Of a DNA stretch of 38,799 nucleotides, positions 1-15,855 are shown in pieces (within the stretch, counting starts at the first letter, position 1; each line of letters opens with the position of its first letter). The notes beneath the pieces were generated by a model. It was given only the letters and a program-made list of their open reading frames with translations. It searched no databases and was not told the origin of the DNA. Made by a program: the position numbers and the translations under genes. Location: IMG/VR virus record IMGVR_UViG_3300050015_000174, positions 1 to 38,799 of that record, one strand, 5' to 3'. Source of the DNA: a virus.

Positions 1-351
1 CGCCGACAGGATTGCAGACGTATCATCATGCGTCCCGTTGCCAACCGCGCCAAACGATTTAATGTTTAGAAGCGTTGTAGTCGGCACCGCCGCACCACCC
101 GCCCCTGGATAGACCGGCCCTTGCCCTACCGTCGCCGCCGCCTGCGAGGCGCCGAGGCCGCCGTTGGCAAGTGGGAGGAACTGTTCGTTTCCTAAAATGC
201 CGGAGTTGTTGTAGAGCAGGTATGAACTGATGCCTCCAGTAATTGTGGTTGAACCAATCGTCAGGCCGCTGCCGGCCCCCGGCAATACCAACTGCGCCTG
301 TGCGCTCGTCGCAAGCAGCGCGAACAGCAGTCCCGCGATAATTCTTTTCAT
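1..351 (-). CDS. Tail spike/fibre with pectate-lyase-type beta-helix start (partial, 3' end beyond left edge)
   Basis: The frame opens at an ATG at 349-351 and stays open to base 1, so the first 117 residues are present. Residues 1-20 read as a Sec signal peptide: MKR, a Leu/Ala core, and an ATSAQAQ cleavage site. Residues 44-56 (YLLYNNSGILGNE) resemble a short element common in phage tail fibres. Residues 100-111 (FGAVGNGTHDDT) match the opening of the pectate-lyase-3/right-handed beta-helix family, whose phage members bind or cut surface polysaccharide. I infer a receptor-binding depolymerase spike. It starts 8 bases after the stop of the upstream gene and closes the visible late operon. 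A signal peptide on a virion spike is unusual. The catalytic part is outside the window, so enzyme activity is unknown. Confidence 0.75.
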   Translation of the reverse strand, partial: MKRIIAGLLFALLATSAQAQLVLPGAGSGLTIGSTTITGGISSYLLYNNSGILGNEQFLPLANGGLGASQAAATVGQGPVYPGAGGAAVPTTTLLNIKSFGAVGNGTHDDTSAILSA

Positions 352-359
352 GGCACCGC

Positions 360-1214
360 TCACTGATAATCGGCTGAGATAGCACCCGTATCGGTGCCGG
401 TGGTGTAGGTGTAGGGCGTAACGGCGGAGGTCAGCAGGATAGTTATGCCCGCCGAGTAATTCGCCGCCAGCGGGATGCGACTAAGCGAGCAGCCGCGCGC
501 CGTGGTGTCGAAGTAGCAGAAGTCGAGAACAAGCGTGCCGGTCAATGCGCCTGTGCTTGGGGCCGTCGTTGCATTGTAGGCGATGCAATAGCCTGCTGCA
601 CCGCCAGTGATAGCCGTGCAATTATATGCGAACAGATTTCCTGGTGAGGCTTTGACGACGAGGGACGTGCCGAGCGCGGACGTTGAAGCGTGGGGAACAG
701 GGTAGGGGGGGATCGGAGCCTGTACACCAGCCAATATCGCCGCCGCACTGGCCTCCGTCACATTGAGCAGCGAGGCGGTGGGTTGGGTGACGACGCCGCC
801 GCCGCCTCCACCACTTCCAGAACTCCCGCAACTAATCGGTGCCGCGCCGTTGTACTGAATCACACGCAGCGTCGAGGTGCTTGATGCAGTAATGGCCGCA
901 ACATTAGTTGCCCCGTTGAGCCACACGCCGATGCAATATCCGGCCGGAAGTGGATACGACGACGTAGTCGCCGTCACCGACGAATTGCCGGGGTTGTAGA
1001 ACACCTCGTTGGCACCGTCGTTGATCAGCAGCGCGGAGCCAAACGGCACCAGCGATCCGGTGAGAGCCACTCGCCCTGTGGTGTTGGTGACTGACAACGA
1101 CACCGGGGAGGAGGCAACCGAGATTGGTGCCGGGGTTGGCGTGCCGCTCTGCGCCAAGGCAGGAGCCGCCAGGACCGCGAGTAACAACGCAACGGCTATG
1201 CTTCTCATCTTCAT
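360..1214 (-). CDS. Signal-peptide-bearing Ser/Thr/Gly-rich protein of the tail region
   Basis: 284 residues if started at the ATG at 1214 (MKMRS), one base after the upstream TGA. I chose this start because a clear signal peptide follows at once (basic MKMR, hydrophobic IAVALLLAVLAA, site near ALAQ, residues 1-22); in-frame codons further upstream are shadow sequence. The mature part is rich in Ser, Thr, Ala and Gly, with a poly-Gly linker at about residues 130-140 that separates two beta-rich halves. Each half contains an AGYCI motif (residues 91-95 and again after the linker), suggesting a duplicated module. I do not recognise a named family. Position between head-tail genes and the spike suggests a virion-associated or exported adhesion or decoration protein; this is inference. 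Confidence 0.7.
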   Translation of the reverse strand: MKMRSIAVALLLAVLAAPALAQSGTPTPAPISVASSPVSLSVTNTTGRVALTGSLVPFGSALLINDGANEVFYNPGNSSVTATTSSYPLPAGYCIGVWLNGATNVAAITASSTSTLRVIQYNGAAPISCGSSGSGGGGGGVVTQPTASLLNVTEASAAAILAGVQAPIPPYPVPHASTSALGTSLVVKASPGNLFAYNCTAITGGAAGYCIAYNATTAPSTGALTGTLVLDFCYFDTTARGCSLSRIPLAANYSAGITILLTSAVTPYTYTTGTDTGAISADYQ

Positions 1215-1215
1215 A

Positions 1216-1749
1216 TCAAGATCCTGTCGAACCTTGCGCGTTGCACCGGATGCCTGCTGTGGCAGCGCCTGCCGTGAACGTGAAGGCAGTGGCTGTAGCC
1301 GTTGATACCAGCGGCGTTGGTAGCGATAAAACAACTTTGTCATAGCCCTGCACGACGATGACCGTCGTGGCCGAATCATTGAACGTCACCGTAGTGCCGA
1401 CCGGGCCAGTGTTGAAGCATTGAATCGATGTCACGTAGATGTTGAGGCCGGCTGCCGGCGCAGCAATAATCGTAGTTGCAGCCGTAGTCGTCGCACTCGC
1501 CGAACCGCGCACCATATTTGCAGTGATGCCAATCACATCAACATAAAACGGATTTGTTGACGTGCCGAACGCAACGCCATTTCCGTCGGCCGGCGTCATC
1601 TGCGGACAAATCACACCCAAGCAATTAAACGCCTTGATGGTCTGTAACGCGTTGTTGCCGTCGCGAATGACGTAATCCGCCGACGCCGGCATCAGCGATG
1701 TCAGCAGCAGGGCCGCGGCGGCCGCCAGAGTTCGCTTGGCCTTGAACAT
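1216..1749 (-). CDS. Signal-peptide-bearing hypothetical protein of the tail region
   Basis: 177 residues from the ATG at 1749 (MFKAKR); an in-frame ATG at 1767 would add six residues and cannot be excluded, since the GGAGG at that point lies about 11 bases before the 1749 ATG. The N-terminus is a signal peptide: basic MFKAKR, an Ala/Leu core, and a MPASA-D cleavage site near residue 25. The rest is Thr/Ala-rich predicted beta structure with a few Cys residues. No family recognised. It is the first of three adjacent genes with export signals. It directly follows a GIY-YIG endonuclease, so its ribosome-binding region was probably rebuilt by that insertion. Confidence 0.65.
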   Translation of the reverse strand: MFKAKRTLAAAAALLLTSLMPASADYVIRDGNNALQTIKAFNCLGVICPQMTPADGNGVAFGTSTNPFYVDVIGITANMVRGSASATTTAATTIIAAPAAGLNIYVTSIQCFNTGPVGTTVTFNDSATTVIVVQGYDKVVLSLPTPLVSTATATAFTFTAGAATAGIRCNAQGSTGS

Positions 1750-1768
1750 CTTGAATATGCCCTCCATT

Positions 1769-2359
1769 TCAAGCGCCGTCTTGCAAAGGGATATGGCCGA
1801 ATTTCCTGCCCTTCCAGAACGCGGACAGTTTTGCTCGAGCTGCTAGAGATAACGACTTCCCAGTCCTGTTGGCGGCGATGCGCTTTCTTACTTCAATGGA
1901 GCGAACCTTGCCGCTATTGGCGGCGGATATTTTAGCTCTTGTTTCAGCCGAAACCAGACGACCAATCATTGCCTCTGCGCGCTTTCTACACGTCTCTGGT
2001 GATTGTTTTTTGCCTCGCTTCGCCAAGGAGTTTTTGAGTTTTGACTCCGCAGTATGCCGAAACCCAAGTTGACTTCCGGCAACTGGAGAAGCGTTATATT
2101 CTGGCTTTAATGAATCAATCGCCAACTGCTCAAACATGAGCAGGTCGCTAGGCCGACAGATAAGCAATTTGGAGAAAACCAGACTTTCAATCCCGTATTT
2201 CACGCAGGCGCGCTGGAGAGGCTGATTGTGGTGGTTTCCTTTTCTCAATTCATGTCGGTGTTGACGCCAGCGATTACGGAAATCAACGGCGCTCCCGACG
2301 TATCTCGATCCAGACGGTGCAGTTATAGTATAAATTCCTGATTTCACTTTACGATCCAT
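1769..2359 (-). CDS. Free-standing GIY-YIG homing endonuclease (copy 1)
   Basis: 196 residues from the ATG at 2359, which overlaps the end of the upstream gene; a GTG at 2371 would add four. Residues about 8-35 carry the GIY-YIG core (SGIYTI, then [14 protein letters not shown] with the catalytic Arg). The C-terminal half is a run of short basic helix repeats (for example [12 protein letters not shown] and [11 protein letters not shown]) of the NUMOD type found in homing endonucleases. Such enzymes cut an allele lacking the gene and spread by repair. Its last codons (LQDGA) echo the end of the upstream gene (LQDGS), which hints at the insertion point. It is more AT-rich than the structural genes around it. 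Confidence 0.85.
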
Positions 2360-2951
2360 CTTGCAATGCACAAATTACCTTAGTCCATCCCGCCGTCATA
2401 GACCACGGTTCAGGCACGAGCGTAACTAGCCAAGTCCAGCCATTTGGTGTGACCACCAAGTCACCGCCCTTGAGCAGTACCCGCACCACACCGTTGATGT
2501 CGCCGGTAACGTACATCGCGCGATAGGTCCCTTGAAGATTCAACCCCTCCATCTGCCGCAAATCGCGCGTCGTCATCGCCTGTATCTGCGCCAGCACCGT
2601 GAGCGACGTCGTCATCGCCTCCGAGGCCACGGTCTGCGGCTGATTGACCGAATAAGTCCCGATTCCGCCCGGTGTCCCGCCAATCTGGTCCGTAATCGTC
2701 GTTCCCGGCAGTAAGGAAGGCCCCGTATCCGCCAGCGCCTGCCCCGCAGCTAGGTAGCCGGAGGCGACCGCCGTCACCGTCAGGGTCGTGCCGGAAACCG
2801 AACCAGTGAGGCTCCCAGGGGTTTCGTAGGCCGGCGTCCTGGAGCCGTCCGGATTGGTCACGGTTCCCACGCTGATCCGGACCGTGACCGGAATACTCTG
2901 GTTAACCGCGCCTATCACTGGCGAAACGATGGCGTGAAGGTTAAGCCCCAT
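2349..2951 (-). CDS. Head-tail connector/tail-completion-type protein with an inserted beta module
   Basis: 200 residues. The two ends resemble a small phage neck/tail-completion family: [17 protein letters not shown] at the start, and [18 protein letters not shown], then a [10 protein letters not shown] strand and [12 protein letters not shown] near the end. Residues about 48-117 look like an inserted beta-rich module ([12 protein letters not shown], then [11 protein letters not shown] and [15 protein letters not shown]) of the kind decorating many phage structural proteins. A similar pattern occurs twice in the cement protein at 7511-8452. The ATG at 2951 lies inside the 3' end of GIY-YIG copy 2, and the stop overlaps GIY-YIG copy 1, so the gene is bracketed by two homing endonucleases. 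The connector role is inferred from family feel and position. Confidence 0.7.
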
Positions 2952-3681
2952 AGAGAATCCATTCTGTGCTTTTTTCCAGAACGGCCTTCCGAGTTCTTTC
3001 GCAAGCGTATTTTATCTCTCTAGTCGCCGCACTTTTTTGTTTCGATTCTGGTGACAAATTTCTAAAAGTGGTCGTTCTGCTTCGGTACGCACGCTCTTCT
3101 TCGGACATCGGAGGTCGCTTTTTAGCAGCTTCGCGAAGGACTGCACTCATCTTGGCGCGTCCTTCAGGTGTCCTTTTCCAAGCCTGTGCTCGTCCTATTG
3201 CATCTCTTGTTTCTCTTGATCTTTTTAATCCAGTAATCCTTGCCGCAATCTTAGCTTTGCGTTCTGGTGATGCTGGCGTTCCAGCACCAGTTTTTGTGCA
3301 TTTAGTCCAAAGATTGTAAAGAGTGTCTATGTCGTGAGCATCCACGGCCGCTTGTTCGTAAAGTGCCAAAATTTCTGCATTTCTTTCGCAAACGATGAGA
3401 ATTTCGAATGCGAGCGATTTAATACCATATTTGACAAAATCGGATTGCATCTCTCCATTCCAATGATCACCGCGCCTCAATAGATGGAGATGGGAGGCCC
3501 ATCTTTTTGAGATGTTGACGCCCTGCCCTATATAAAACTTAGGCGGTAGATCGCTTCGATTTATCGCAATGCGATAGATACCGGCCCCCTTAGCTAGGGG
3601 GCCGTATCGTTCAAGAAAGAAAGCTTTTGTATCGCTCACTTCCACTGGGGATGGCAGGTTCACGTTCTCAGCCTCCGGCAT
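2941..3681 (-). CDS. Free-standing GIY-YIG homing endonuclease (copy 2)
   Basis: 246 residues. The start at 3681 has an AAGAGG Shine-Dalgarno three bases upstream. Residues about 33-62 hold the GIY-YIG core (AGIYRIAIN, then [14 protein letters not shown]). NUMOD-like basic repeats follow ([37 protein letters not shown]), and these normally wrap the target DNA. Its stop overlaps the start of the next gene by 11 bases, so the downstream ribosome-binding site lies within the endonuclease. Composition is visibly AT-richer than the neighbouring structural genes, consistent with an invading element. Confidence 0.85.
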
Positions 3682-11726: not shown

Positions 11727-12547
11727 GTAAAGCCCTTAATCACTGCCGCGCTCACGCACCTGCACCCCGGGAGCTGACCTGGAAGTATCCACTCACCACG
11801 AAATCCGCCGCCGCGGACGCGATAAGCCTCAGGATCGTACCATCCGACAGCAGGATTATATTCCTTTCCACTCTCGGCGACGTGGGTGCGACGAGGCTCT
11901 TTGCCCCCGTGAGAATGTAGCCATTTGCATTTTGTGATCCCCACCTCGTTTTGCCGCGCCGCAGTCATGCTCGAAGTTGCGAGGTTGTTCTGAGATCGCG
12001 CGATAATGGCCGCCCGCCGCCGCGTGACGCCATAATGCTCCTCTAATTCTTTTGCCAGCGAGCCGAGATCGCGGCCGGTCTGGACCGACCGCATTACCGC
12101 GCCTTGAACTTGCGTGAGATAGGCTTCGGGAATCGATTTGATGAGCTGCACATTTTGCTCGATCGTGGCCCGCAGAATATCGCGCATCGCCGGGCTCATT
12201 TGAAACTCGACGCTAATCCCGGAACGCCGAAGAATGGCGCGGAGCGCGTCGTCCGATCGCCGCGACGCCTTGGTGGCAAACCACTTGGCTAGGTCAATTG
12301 ATCCTTCCTTGAATCGCCGGCGCCATTGCTTGGTGAGTTCGTCGATCGCCTTTTGAAGCTCGGCGGCCGGCACCTCGTCTTGGGCGATGGCTGGCTCGTT
12401 GGCGCGATAGGCAGCCTTAAGCCAGTAATCAAAACTGCGGTGCATATCGTCGACAAGGGCGCGGAGCCTGCGCCGATATGCTGCCTCCAATCCGACGTTT
12501 GGATGAACGGCCGGGAGTATCTTCTCACCTTTGCGACGAATGCTCAT
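11723..12547 (-). CDS. MuF-like head morphogenesis protein
   Basis: 274 residues. The C-terminal third is the conserved MuF domain: TRRRAAIIARSQNNLATSSM, then KCKWLHSHGGKEPRRTHVA, and GEWILPGQLPGCRCVSAA at the end. The N-terminal two thirds are helical and basic. MuF proteins bind portal and DNA and enter the head in small copy number. Both ends are coupled by ATGA overlaps, to the portal upstream and DUF6527 downstream. Confidence 0.88.
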   Translation of the reverse strand: MSIRRKGEKILPAVHPNVGLEAAYRRRLRALVDDMHRSFDYWLKAAYRANEPAIAQDEVPAAELQKAIDELTKQWRRRFKEGSIDLAKWFATKASRRSDDALRAILRRSGISVEFQMSPAMRDILRATIEQNVQLIKSIPEAYLTQVQGAVMRSVQTGRDLGSLAKELEEHYGVTRRRAAIIARSQNNLATSSMTAARQNEVGITKCKWLHSHGGKEPRRTHVAESGKEYNPAVGWYDPEAYRVRGGGFRGEWILPGQLPGCRCVSAAVIKGFT

Positions 12548-15500
12548 TCTCTTTTTTTCGCGTATCGCGCGAAAATCTTCATCACTTCTTCAGGATATTC
12601 TATTCCAGCCTGCATTCCAGCGTGAACTTCAGAAACAAACTCCTTTGGATTCATTGCAGCATATCTTGATACTAATTTTCTCGCCACATCTTGTTCGTCA
12701 ATTACGCTCATGAAGTTATCTGGAGCATCATACAGCGCATGGCCAGATTCATGATGAATGACGTGTTCTGGACTGTTGGATGAAAGAAACCCGCTCTCTT
12801 TCTGTAATTTCATTTTCTCAACTGGATCGGACCAAAACTTATGAGCGGCATTGATGCTGATCGCTCCGTGCGAATAATAAGCAGCTCCAGATGCTTTAGG
12901 ATTAGAATAAGCCTCTGTTTTATGTCCCAAACTGGCCGCTAATTTTCTAGCCTCCTCGGCATTTGCTTTCTTATTCTTCCCCCATATTGGCTTGTAAATT
13001 TCGCCGCCCGCACCGCCCGCGCCGCCTCCAATGCCAAATTTTCCATCTTCTTCGCGTGGATGGTCTGATTCGTTAAATTCAGCATCACATGAGAGAATCT
13101 CTTCATCTTCAGTATCGACGAAAGGGAACGGGGCCGCGTCCTGGCCGCCGCCCTCCTTTGGTTTAGTGCCGCCTGCGGCCGGTTCAGCTAGAGGATCGGG
13201 CCTTCCTCCAGCAGGTTCGAGGCCGCCTATCTCTTCCTCTTCCCTGAGGTCAGGCACGTCCTCAACATCAAGATCAGCATACGGCAATTCCGGATCATTC
13301 GCGATCTTCTTGCGAACCTCTTCAGGCCACAACACGCCAGTGTCGATATAGATCTGATCGCGCTCGGCTTCGGCCTTCTGCTGCTCGCCGCGTTCCTTCT
13401 CTGTCATCACGCGCAGCGGCTCGAACACGATGCCGATCTGTGGGTCGATCTCACCCCATAGCGACAGTTGCTCGAAGTTTACTACGCGAGTCAACTCAGG
13501 CCGAAAAAGCCTGTTCTGATAAGCACTTATGGTGTCATCATAGCAAGAAATTTCTCCCTCCGACGAGGCATTTAATCCTGACGGAGTCATGCCAGTGAAC
13601 TTCACCAGGGGAATGCGCGCGATAGAATTATGCACCAAAATTCCGTTTGCATAGAACTCCGGTAAAAACCCATCATCAACTTCGATGTTGTAAACCGGCT
13701 GACGCGGCACGCTTATTTTGGAGACCATCGTGACGGGCACGGCGTTTGCAGTCGCCAGAACAGAATTGGACATCAATTCGCGTGGCGGTAAACTTTGTTC
13801 CACATTGTAAGCATTGTTTGTCGAGCGATCCACGGATGCGTCTGTAACGGGCGCACTGCATACACGCGCTAGAGCAGAATCGTGTATCGACGCGCTTGGC
13901 TGTGAATGACTTTCCGCATTGCTCGCATGACCGAGCGTAGGAAGCTGGCCCCCACCCACATCGAAGTTTGTAAGCCTTGGTTCTGCAAGCCTGCGAACAA
14001 TAGATGGATCGTTCAACAATCGCGCATTTGAATTTAGTTCCGCAAATCTTGCAATGCTTGACGTGCTTTCGTTCGTAGACGCGGATGTGACGAGCCTTGT
14101 GTTCGATACGAGTGAGTAATTCAAGATTCTCCCAGCCGTTGCTTGTGCCGTCGTCATCTCCGTGATGGATTTCGTAACCCTCAGGGATAGGGCCGCGATG
14201 CGTTTCCCACATGACGCAATGAAGCAGACCACCAGCTTTTTGATTTCGGTAATAACCCTCTTTTGTCTGCCACCACCATCGGCCACGCCAAGCGACGGAC
14301 TGTCCGTATTTACCTGGAAAGGTGTTTTGAGCGCGAGCAGGCGGTGGGAAGTCGAGACATTCTTTGCATCGACAAAAACTTGATTTGATTCCGACCATAT
14401 CGGATGGCTTTCGGTAGTTGCTATTACGGAATCCCCTGCTTCGATCTTAACCAAAGTGTCAGAATGTCCCGTAACTCCTACCCATCTTATAGGAGCAAAA
14501 CCGTTGCGCGTCAAAACACTATCTTTCAGAGTAACCTTTTCGATTGGAACCTGCCCGCGATCAGTCTCGATAAGAATCCCGGCGGGCAAACAAGCAATGT
14601 GTTCTTGAGCCTGTGCTTGCAGCTCGTGCAGTCCGGCCAGCGATGCCGAGACGTTCTTGAAATCTTCGCTCGCCTTGTTGACGACGAAGGTCCCGTCATT
14701 ATCGCGCAGCGCATTGAACATCGCCACGCGCGCCATCAATGCTTCGGCGTTATTCCCCTGCATGATCGTCTGCAGGTCAGTCATCAGCACCATCACGGAG
14801 AACGAGTGAATCAGATCGGCAACGCTCTTCTTGGTGTTGAGCCAAATATCAACGTACGGCATTGCCATCTGCGACATTGAGAGGCCGCCGAAAGCATAGG
14901 CCGGTTTCATTATATCGGGGACTGGCCGACCGACGAATGTCAGCAAGCGGGACCGATCAATCTCACGGCCCATGACGTACCAGACGGCAGGGTCATACCA
15001 ATTCGGCGCCAGCGGGTTCGTCGCGTTGTAACTCGTCGGATAGCACCAGATCGGCTCGATGACTTTGAGTTCGTTGAATGAGCCCTTCTTGATCTTGCCC
15101 TTGCTCATCTTGTCGCGACCGTTGCCGATTGGAGATTTCAACTCGGCTGGGTCGCCGTTAATGTCGGTGCCGAAATTGAGGTAGAGATGGCTGCGGCCGA
15201 AGAAGCCGTCATTGCGCGAGATCTGATAGAACCGGTCTCGCACATCGAGCCGCTCCTGGTCGTCCTTGAGCGCCTTTACCTTGTCGGCTTTGCCAGCGGC
15301 TTTGACGCGCTTCTGGCGCTCGTCAGGGTCGGCCTGCCGCTCGGCCTCACCATCCGGATCGTTATCGGCGCGGCGTTTTTGGTCGTCCTGCTCGGTCTCG
15401 TCGCCGGTGATCTCGAAGTCGATCCATTTGCGGGTCGAGTCGTCCGCGATGGTCTCCGAGATGATGCGATATTCAGGGCGCTGGGCGAGCTCGGAGAGAT

Positions 15501-15855
15501 ACGGATAACCGAGGAACAACAGCCCTTGCGATTGAAGTCCGGCGAACGAGGCGGCAGCCCACTCGCCGCTCGCCCAGTTCATCGAGTCGTCCATCGCCAT
15601 CTGTAGATTTTTTGGAGGCGTGGCCTGGGGCGGGAACGCCGGCAACTTGAATGGGTCGAAGGTGGTGTCCTGCTTGCGCGCCTGAGCGGCGTTGCGGCTG
15701 GCCTCGGCTACCTGCCGCATGACCATCGCCGAGAGGGTCAGCGCACGCGATTGATCTTTCGGCTCGGCAGCAATCTTGGTCTTTGCGCCCTTCTCCTTGT
15801 CGGTCATCTTGCGACGCCCGGCACCCGGTCGCGCACCGCCCCACTGTCCCGTCAT
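12544..15855 (-). CDS. Portal protein (DUF1073) interrupted by an intein and fused to a C-terminal zincin-like domain
   Basis: 1103 residues before splicing. The extein is a DUF1073-type portal: residues about 50-421 include DSMNWASGEWAAASFAGL, RPEYRIISETIAD and RNDGFFGRSHLYLNFG, and after the intein IPLVKFTGMTPSGLNASS and the DPQIGIVFEPL segment. The intein occupies residues 422-743 (Cys1, TxxH, final HN before Ser+1). Splicing would join QAQEHIA to SIARIPL, restoring a normal portal. From about residue 927 comes an FNESDHPREEDGKFG linker, then a domain with HESGH at 1035-1039 and EFVSE at 1072-1076, a metallopeptidase-like (zincin) pattern. That last part (about 12544-13077) is visibly AT-richer than the portal body, suggesting separate acquisition. 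A 4-base ATGA overlap links it to MuF. Confidence 0.88.
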   Translation of the reverse strand: MTGQWGGARPGAGRRKMTDKEKGAKTKIAAEPKDQSRALTLSAMVMRQVAEASRNAAQARKQDTTFDPFKLPAFPPQATPPKNLQMAMDDSMNWASGEWAAASFAGLQSQGLLFLGYPYLSELAQRPEYRIISETIADDSTRKWIDFEITGDETEQDDQKRRADNDPDGEAERQADPDERQKRVKAAGKADKVKALKDDQERLDVRDRFYQISRNDGFFGRSHLYLNFGTDINGDPAELKSPIGNGRDKMSKGKIKKGSFNELKVIEPIWCYPTSYNATNPLAPNWYDPAVWYVMGREIDRSRLLTFVGRPVPDIMKPAYAFGGLSMSQMAMPYVDIWLNTKKSVADLIHSFSVMVLMTDLQTIMQGNNAEALMARVAMFNALRDNDGTFVVNKASEDFKNVSASLAGLHELQAQAQEHIACLPAGILIETDRGQVPIEKVTLKDSVLTRNGFAPIRWVGVTGHSDTLVKIEAGDSVIATTESHPIWSESNQVFVDAKNVSTSHRLLALKTPFQVNTDSPSLGVADGGGRQKRVITEIKKLVVCFIASCGKRIAALSLRVTKSITEMTTAQATAGRILNYSLVSNTRLVTSASTNESTSSIARFAELNSNARLLNDPSIVRRLAEPRLTNFDVGGGQLPTLGHASNAESHSQPSASIHDSALARVCSAPVTDASVDRSTNNAYNVEQSLPPRELMSNSVLATANAVPVTMVSKISVPRQPVYNIEVDDGFLPEFYANGILVHNSIARIPLVKFTGMTPSGLNASSEGEISCYDDTISAYQNRLFRPELTRVVNFEQLSLWGEIDPQIGIVFEPLRVMTEKERGEQQKAEAERDQIYIDTGVLWPEEVRKKIANDPELPYADLDVEDVPDLREEEEIGGLEPAGGRPDPLAEPAAGGTKPKEGGGQDAAPFPFVDTEDEEILSCDAEFNESDHPREEDGKFGIGGGAGGAGGEIYKPIWGKNKKANAEEARKLAASLGHKTEAYSNPKASGAAYYSHGAISINAAHKFWSDPVEKMKLQKESGFLSSNSPEHVIHHESGHALYDAPDNFMSVIDEQDVARKLVSRYAAMNPKEFVSEVHAGMQAGIEYPEEVMKIFARYAKKRE
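13627..14592 (-). other. Intein inside the portal protein (Hint domain, 322 residues)
   Basis: The first intein codon is the TGT at 14590-14592 and the last is the AAT at 13627-13629, followed by Ser+1. N-terminal block A is CLPAGILIETDRG and block B is VIATTESHPIW (TxxH). C-terminal block F is VYNIEVDDGFLPEFY and block G is ANGILVHN. All residues needed for standard splicing (Cys1, block-B His, penultimate His, terminal Asn, Ser+1) are present. Between blocks B and F, where an endonuclease domain would normally sit in frame, the intein frame encodes about 230 residues of low-complexity Ser/Thr/Ala-rich sequence; the real endonuclease is in another frame of the same DNA. Confidence 0.9.
13676..14398 (-). 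CDS. HNH homing endonuclease nested out of frame inside the portal intein
   Basis: 240 residues, same strand as the portal but shifted by two bases. After a short start come RWWWQTKEGYYR, LLHCVMWETHRGPIPEGYEI and HHGDDDGTSNGWENLELL with a closing EHKARH, the HNH_3-type nuclease core (about residues 42-110). Three zinc-finger-like modules of the form C-x2-CG-x-(K/S)-F-x7-8-(Y/F)C-S-x2-C follow. The ATG at 14398 has only a weak GAAAG upstream and lies inside intein block B; the stop lies inside block F. So the gene fills exactly the slot of an intein endonuclease without being part of the intein chain. Expression would need internal initiation or frameshifting, which is not shown. Confidence 0.85.
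   Translation of the reverse strand: MVGIKSSFCRCKECLDFPPPARAQNTFPGKYGQSVAWRGRWWWQTKEGYYRNQKAGGLLHCVMWETHRGPIPEGYEIHHGDDDGTSNGWENLELLTRIEHKARHIRVYERKHVKHCKICGTKFKCAIVERSIYCSQACRTKAYKLRCGWGPASYARSCEQCGKSFTAKRVDTRFCSSACMQCARYRRIRGSLDKQCLQCGTKFTATRIDVQFCSGDCKRRARHDGLQNKRAASAGLQHRS

What the first reader, a model, noticed from the sequence alone, without database searches (positions are those of the whole stretch)
13627..14592. HNH homing endonuclease encoded out of frame inside the portal intein
The intein has intact splicing blocks (Cys1, TxxH, HN, Ser+1). Between blocks B and F, where an in-frame endonuclease normally lies, the intein frame has only low-complexity sequence, while the same DNA in a frame shifted by two bases encodes a full HNH core plus three zinc-finger modules (13676-14398). 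The two frames overlap for the whole 240 codons. The intein frame stays open throughout; with a few percent stop chance per codon, that is unlikely by accident (rough estimate, 1 in 1000 or less). This looks like an endonuclease separated from its intein by overprinting, letting the portal mature without a fused nuclease. I know of no standard description of this layout.
Basis: partly seen in the sequence, partly recalled or inferred. Interest (0 to 1): 0.92.

Follow-up and report, generated by a model that had tools for sequence, protein, structure and literature searches.

The report
Homing nuclease hidden inside intein
A phage portal gene carries a self-splicing protein insert (intein), and the DNA-cutting enzyme that probably spreads this insert is written in a shifted reading frame of the same DNA; more than 130 related phage sequences share this layout, so it is a widespread design rather than an oddity.

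Summary
The portal ORF (15855-12544, minus strand) contains a 322-aa intein (14592-13627) with Cys1, TxxH, HN and Ser+1. A 240-aa HNH nuclease with three zinc modules (14398-13676) lies in the -1 frame of the same DNA, and both frames are open. A strain contig with SNPs but no indels (L009) and more than 130 relatives exclude a sequencing error.

It is not unique. Relatives of this HNH, and separately relatives of the splicing domain, come from phage terminase (TerL) and portal inteins in which the HNH is always in the same -1 frame: 83 non-redundant loci from the HNH search and 73 of 80 from the intein search. None of this family is in frame. Stops in the intein frame are purged (0 of 219 vulnerable Leu/Val sites, against 102 of 196 in free-standing homologues). 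Changes fall on HNH third positions, and splicing residues are conserved in about 98%. Some relatives have lost the HNH (mini-inteins); others are split in the overlap (trans-splicing type).

Best reading: a mobile intein whose homing nuclease is translated separately from an internal start while the same mRNA gives the splicing precursor. Closest published case: the out-of-frame HNH 'ShiLan' insertion, which has no intein.

The parts
12544..15855 (-). Portal ORF holding the intein (N-extein 15855-14593, C-extein 13626-12547)
13627..14592 (-). Intein, 322 aa, Cys1 ... TxxH ... HN | Ser+1
   Evidence: for boundaries; empty portal alleles L267, L268 confirm the insertion point
14323..14592 (-). 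N-terminal splicing half (intein residues 1-90)
   Evidence: AlphaFold2 pLDDT about 97; Foldseek hits mini-inteins
13627..13758 (-). C-terminal splicing half (intein residues 279-322)
   Evidence: AlphaFold2 pLDDT about 97
13759..14322 (-). Intein-frame linker (residues 91-278), predicted disordered, only kept free of stops
   Evidence: pLDDT about 47; intein-frame identity 0.25 between relatives against 0.48 for the HNH frame
13676..14398 (-). HNH endonuclease ORF, 240 aa, -1 frame relative to the portal and intein
   Evidence: AlphaFold2 pLDDT 86.6; best solved structure I-HmuI 1u3e, probability 0.91
14096..14224 (-). HNH catalytic core (HNH_3, residues 59-101; His78, His79, Asn87, Asn91 and His100 invariant among 58 relatives)
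13985..14053 (-). Zinc module 1 (C116, C119, C134, C138)
   Evidence: invariant
13862..13927 (-). Zinc module 2 (C158, C161, C175, C179)
   Evidence: invariant
13748..13813 (-). Zinc module 3 (C196, C199, C213, C217), overlapping the start of the C-terminal splicing half
   Evidence: invariant
14396..14398 (-). ATG start of the HNH, inside the HPIW motif of the splicing domain; no clear Shine-Dalgarno here; upstream HNH-frame stop at 14447-14449
   Evidence: an ATG at this place in window relatives L015, L016, L017 and L018

Best explanation
This is a mobile intein whose homing endonuclease is not fused into it but nested out of frame. One mRNA is read in two ways. Ribosomes in the portal frame read straight through and make a portal-intein precursor; its two splicing halves fold around a long disordered loop, excise themselves and join the portal. 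Ribosomes that start inside the intein, just after splicing block B, read the -1 frame and make a separate HNH zinc-module endonuclease. The nuclease would cut intein-free portal (or TerL) alleles at the insertion site, so that repair copies in the whole cassette. Shown here: both frames, their conservation, stop purging in the intein frame, conserved splicing and HNH residues, enriched start codons and ribosome-binding sites, empty sites, HNH loss to mini-inteins, and much higher intein than extein similarity. Inferred: translation of the HNH, splicing, DNA cleavage and homing.
For: Recurrence: 84 non-redundant records (83 loci; L033 counted twice) with the HNH in the -1 frame, intein frame open throughout, against 3 in-frame cases with only weak matches to this HNH and 1 in the +1 frame. 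Survey started from the splicing domain: 73 of 80 loci have the -1 HNH, 7 are mini-inteins, none in frame. Stop purging: 0 of 219 Leu/Val+A sites use stop-forming codons against 102 of 196 in free-standing homologues, Fisher p 3e-42; Met+A 0 of 115 against 31 of 91. HNH under purifying selection: substitutions at positions 1/2/3 = 26981/23735/41305; third-position rate falls from 0.477 to 0.331 where the HNH overlaps the C-terminal splicing half. Splicing residues: Cys1 144, TxxH 145, terminal Asn at least 143 of 146. Internal start: an ATG near the HNH start in 114 of 146 (19 expected), any start codon 140 of 146; strong Shine-Dalgarno 21% against 5% in controls. Structures. Mobility: empty portal sites; TerL and portal hosts at several sites, with two adjacent portal sites both filled in L015; median identity Hint 0.39 and HNH 0.37 against extein 0.17.
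Against: No expression, splicing or cleavage data. The window's own HNH start has no clear Shine-Dalgarno sequence. Slippery heptamers are somewhat more frequent than in the extein control (13 against 2.7 of 146), so frameshifting may contribute in a minority. Higher intein than extein identity could partly reflect stronger constraint. HNH distances follow extein distances as well as they follow Hint distances, so long-term co-inheritance in phages is not separated from homing.
Confidence: 0.82

Rival explanations
1. Programmed -1 frameshifting: the HNH is reached from the intein frame by slippage and made as a HintN-HNH fusion; the constant -1 offset would be the signature.
For: The offset is -1 in all 146 analysed cis loci of this HNH family; slippery heptamers in 13 loci against 2.7 expected.
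Against: 133 of 146 have no slippery heptamer, 140 of 146 have a start codon, and ribosome-binding sites are enriched. In split relatives HintN is in any of the three frames relative to the HNH. The -1 frame is also the alternative frame with fewest stops (free-standing homologues 5.2 against 17.1), which explains the constant offset.
Confidence: 0.08
2. The HNH frame is a decaying remnant of a free-standing gene that landed in a mini-intein; only the intein frame matters.
For: Decayed or deleted copies exist (13 of 80; L033).
Against: 67 of 80 keep an intact HNH; third-position bias and invariant catalytic and zinc residues.
Confidence: 0.04
3. The intein frame is open by chance or composition; the protein is really made in pieces (trans-splicing) in all members.
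For: At this one locus an open frame by chance is about 30%; 21 relatives are truly split.
Against: 0 of 219 stop-forming choices, including in AT-rich genomes where the other frame has 20-34 stops; deletions that remove the HNH leave HintN and HintC in one frame.
Confidence: 0.04
4. Sequencing or assembly error: paired indels hide an ordinary in-frame HNH intein.
For: None found.
Against: Independent strain contig with SNPs and no indels; same frame relation in more than 130 other loci including complete genomes of cultured phages.
Confidence: 0.01

Closest known systems
[quoted passage not shown]
   Same: HNH ORF hidden in the third (-1) frame of an insert that adds no stop to the host gene; internal start proposed; spread like a homing element.
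   Different: ShiLan has no intein splicing motifs and is thought to stay in the protein. Here the nuclease sits in an intein with splicing residues conserved. The phage searches with three HNHs of this family listed no mycobacteriophage.
Canonical bifunctional inteins with an in-frame endonuclease, such as mycobacteriophage TerL inteins (PMC5050341)
   Same: Same position between blocks B and F, same host gene type (TerL), homing logic.
   Different: There the LAGLIDADG endonuclease is fused in frame and excised with the intein. Here it is a separate protein from another frame.
Fractured genes with split inteins and an intervening endonuclease gene (Dassa 2009, cited in PMC10448857; AceL NrdHF, PMC7891396)
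   Same: Endonuclease encoded separately between two splicing halves; 21 relatives here are of this kind, with the IntC ORF opening inside the HNH gene.
   Different: The window intein is one continuous ORF, expected to splice in cis.
I-HmuI-type HNH homing endonucleases (PDB 1u3e)
   Same: HNH core; best solved-structure match.
   Different: I-HmuI is intron-encoded (own knowledge); here the host element is an intein, and the nuclease has three zinc modules.

Membership tests
Class 1 intein | Cys/Ser1, TxxH block B, C-terminal HN, Cys/Ser/Thr+1 | tested here: met
   Cys1 144/146, TxxH 145/146, Asn at least 143/146 in relatives
Class 1 intein | HINT fold | tested here: met
   (mini-inteins, probability 1.00)
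Class 1 intein | Protein splicing activity | not testable with these tools
   needs expression
Canonical in-frame homing intein | Endonuclease in the same frame between blocks B and F | tested here: not met
HNH homing endonuclease | HNH motif and zinc modules | tested here: met
HNH homing endonuclease | Cleaves the empty allele | not testable with these tools
   empty alleles exist; cleavage not assayed
ShiLan-type hidden HNH | HNH out of frame, host frame open | tested here: met
ShiLan-type hidden HNH | Insert without splicing domain | tested here: not met
Fractured gene / split intein | IntN and IntC on separate ORFs | tested here: not met
   one ORF in the window; 21 relatives are split
Group I or II intron | Rfam intron match | tested here: not met
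   no intron family at E<=1

The most novel reading that the evidence does not exclude
A widespread architectural class of inteins in which splicing and homing functions are two separate proteins encoded in overlapping frames of the same DNA. It works in cis, and it stands at the hinge between mini-inteins (HNH deleted) and natural split inteins (stop in the overlap), so nested out-of-frame endonucleases would be a route by which split inteins and fractured genes arise.
Probability: 0.6. Interest if true: 0.88.

Novelty: new variant of a known kind. Interest (0 to 1): 0.8.

Why it matters
Textbook homing inteins fuse the nuclease into the splicing protein. Here nuclease and splicing domain share DNA but not polypeptide, so each can evolve, be expressed and decay separately. 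It explains why many phage TerL and portal inteins would look like endonuclease-free inteins with a long odd linker: the nuclease is in the other frame, where standard gene calling hides it. It gives long, verifiable overlapping coding (about 600 nt) in more than 130 loci, a clean set for studying dual coding. It also makes the origin of natural split inteins testable, because nested, mini and split forms occur in one family.

Tried and rejected
Paired-indel artefact: rejected by L009 and relatives. Self-splicing intron: no Rfam match. In-frame HNH relatives: sought, only three found, with weak matches to this HNH (L165, L167, L169). Programmed frameshift as general mechanism: most loci lack slippery sites. 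PDB sequence search of the HNH: no match. HintN alignments A6 and A7 were too diverse for a collection scan; A8 worked. Some IMG/VR rows are repeat retrievals of one contig; counts use de-replicated groups where stated (the 146 loci are de-replicated at 90% only for the first set; the second set of 73 holds 64 non-redundant groups, 2 of them already in the first). The preprint most likely to overlap (bioRxiv 2025.01.02.630785, cited in PMC11855218, on non-canonical intein architecture in actinobacteriophages) and Dassa 2009 are not held; nine literature searches found no description of an intein with an out-of-frame endonuclease.

Full report
Observation. The portal ORF of this viral contig (15855-12544, minus) contains a 322-residue intein at 14592-13627 with Cys1, TESH (block B), HN and Ser+1. 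Pfam Hint_2 and NCBIfam intein_Cterm agree, Hint_2 just below its cut-off. A second ORF, 14398-13676, 240 aa, is in the -1 frame and matches HNH_3 (1.6e-13) and several HNH PHROGs. Both frames stay open in an independent strain contig (L009) with SNPs but no indels inside the intein. Portal genes without the intein (L267, L268) run on without a gap exactly at the predicted insertion point, QAQEHxA|SxxRIPLV.

Structure. AlphaFold2 on an alignment of nested inteins gives two confident splicing halves, residues 1-90 and 279-322 (pLDDT about 97), joined by 188 residues of pLDDT about 47. Foldseek finds mini-inteins with probability 1.00. The HNH frame folds with mean pLDDT 86.6; its best solved-structure match is I-HmuI at probability 0.91, E 0.015. 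So the intein frame across the nuclease encodes a disordered loop, while the other frame encodes a folded nuclease. The HNH start codon lies in the HPIW motif behind block B, and the HNH end overlaps the C-terminal splicing half, so both ends are truly dual-coding.

Relatives. Phage hits led to three TerL genes with the same layout: Tetrasphaera phage TJE1, Acinetobacter phage Highwayman and Vibrio phages 1.238/1.245. The annotations treat the first two as plain terminases; in the Vibrio phages the intein is split. IMG/VR, GTDB and phage loci were then classified by script with HMMs for HintN, HintC and HNH. Of 169 non-redundant HNH groups, 84 (83 loci) are nested in an open intein with the HNH in the -1 frame, 1 in the +1 frame, 21 lie between split halves, 56 have no intein nearby, 3 are in frame and match this HNH only weakly (2 complete, 1 partial), and 4 are otherwise partial. 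A second scan used only the splicing domain as query: 73 of 80 loci carry the -1 HNH and 7 are mini-inteins; none is in frame. In 6 of the 73 the HNH is truncated while the intein stays in frame. Hosts of the representatives tested are TerL at several conserved sites, or portal at two neighbouring sites; L015 has both portal sites filled.

Is it more than chance? Across loci it is overwhelming. At Leu/Val codons followed by A, where a codon ending in TG or TA would create a stop in the intein frame, nested members use such codons 0 of 219 times, free-standing homologues 102 of 196 and split members 52 of 83. The same nested genes use these endings 262 of 639 times where no stop would arise. 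Free-standing homologues have on average 5.2 stops in this frame and 17.1 in the other, which also explains why the -1 offset is the one used.

Selection. Between nested pairs, substitutions concentrate at HNH third positions, which are second positions of the intein frame; mean identity is 0.48 for the HNH and 0.25 for the intein frame. The third-position rate drops from 0.477 to 0.331 where the HNH overlaps the C-terminal splicing half, the expected mark of double constraint. Splicing residues are kept: Cys1 144/146, TxxH 145/146, terminal Asn at least 143/146. HNH and zinc residues are invariant in alignments of 51-58 sequences.

Expression of the HNH. A start codon lies at the HNH beginning in 140 of 146 loci (ATG in 114, 19 expected). 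Strong Shine-Dalgarno matches occur in 21% against 5% in controls, and in 50% against 11% in split members. Slippery heptamers occur in only 13 of 146. Internal initiation is therefore the best-supported route. The window's own ATG lacks a clear Shine-Dalgarno sequence, so its efficiency is open.

Mobility and life cycle. Inteins and HNHs from distant hosts are far more alike (median identity 0.39 and 0.37) than the exteins (0.17). Empty sites, filled sites, truncated HNHs and mini-inteins coexist, as in a homing cycle of invasion, decay and loss. Split members have lower extein GC than nested ones (median 0.46 against 0.58, p 0.0009); a plausible inference is that AT-rich genomes cannot keep the long overlap free of stops and move to trans-splicing. 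On the quick HNH tree, nested, split and free forms are interspersed (26 changes in all), so the forms have probably interconverted several times; the direction is not determined. The tree has many weakly supported forks.

Comparison with the literature. The closest report is the ShiLan domain (PMC11855218): an out-of-frame HNH in a phage methylase, with the host frame open, but without splicing motifs. Mycobacteriophage TerL inteins (PMC5050341) carry in-frame LAGLIDADG nucleases. Fractured genes with split inteins (AceL NrdHF in PMC7891396; Dassa 2009, cited in PMC10448857) place the nuclease gene between separate halves. No held paper describes a cis intein with its endonuclease out of frame. 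A 2025 preprint by the ShiLan group on non-canonical actinobacteriophage inteins could not be read and may overlap.

Verdict. Observation confirmed; interpretation supported with corrections. A new, widespread variant of homing intein. Shown by sequence: architecture, conservation in both frames, stop purging, presence/absence polymorphism. Inferred: splicing, separate translation of the nuclease and homing.

Noticed in passing
L015:2804-4669: Two nested inteins with out-of-frame HNH ORFs sit in tandem in one portal gene, at two neighbouring conserved sites.
   Followed up: partly
L183 (Lactobacillus phage CL2) 455-2771; L181 (Brochothrix phage BL3) 709-2604: TerL genes of these cultured phages appear to be split-intein genes: annotated TerL ends in HintN, and HintC plus a short C-extein is a separate or unannotated ORF opening inside the HNH gene.
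   Followed up: partly
L003/L185 (Vibrio phages 1.238.A, 1.245.O) 3-3485: One TerL gene seems to hold two inteins: an upstream one with an in-frame LAGLIDADG-like insert and a downstream split one with the HNH.
   Followed up: no
L108/L109 288-3641: A portal intein with an HNH ORF in the +1 instead of the -1 frame, apparently an independent origin of the nested layout.
   Followed up: no
window 12544-13155(-): The portal protein has a long C-terminal tail with a HESGH (zincin-like) motif; no Pfam family matched.
   Followed up: partly
window 13233-15487 versus L009: Divergence between the two strains is low in and upstream of the intein (5 SNPs in 966 nt) but rises to about 10% just downstream of it, suggesting recombination or gene conversion.
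   Followed up: no
L006, L007, L176, L179, L184: Free-standing members of this HNH family sit directly beside terL or terS in cultured phages, hinting at exchange between free-standing and intein-nested forms.
   Followed up: partly
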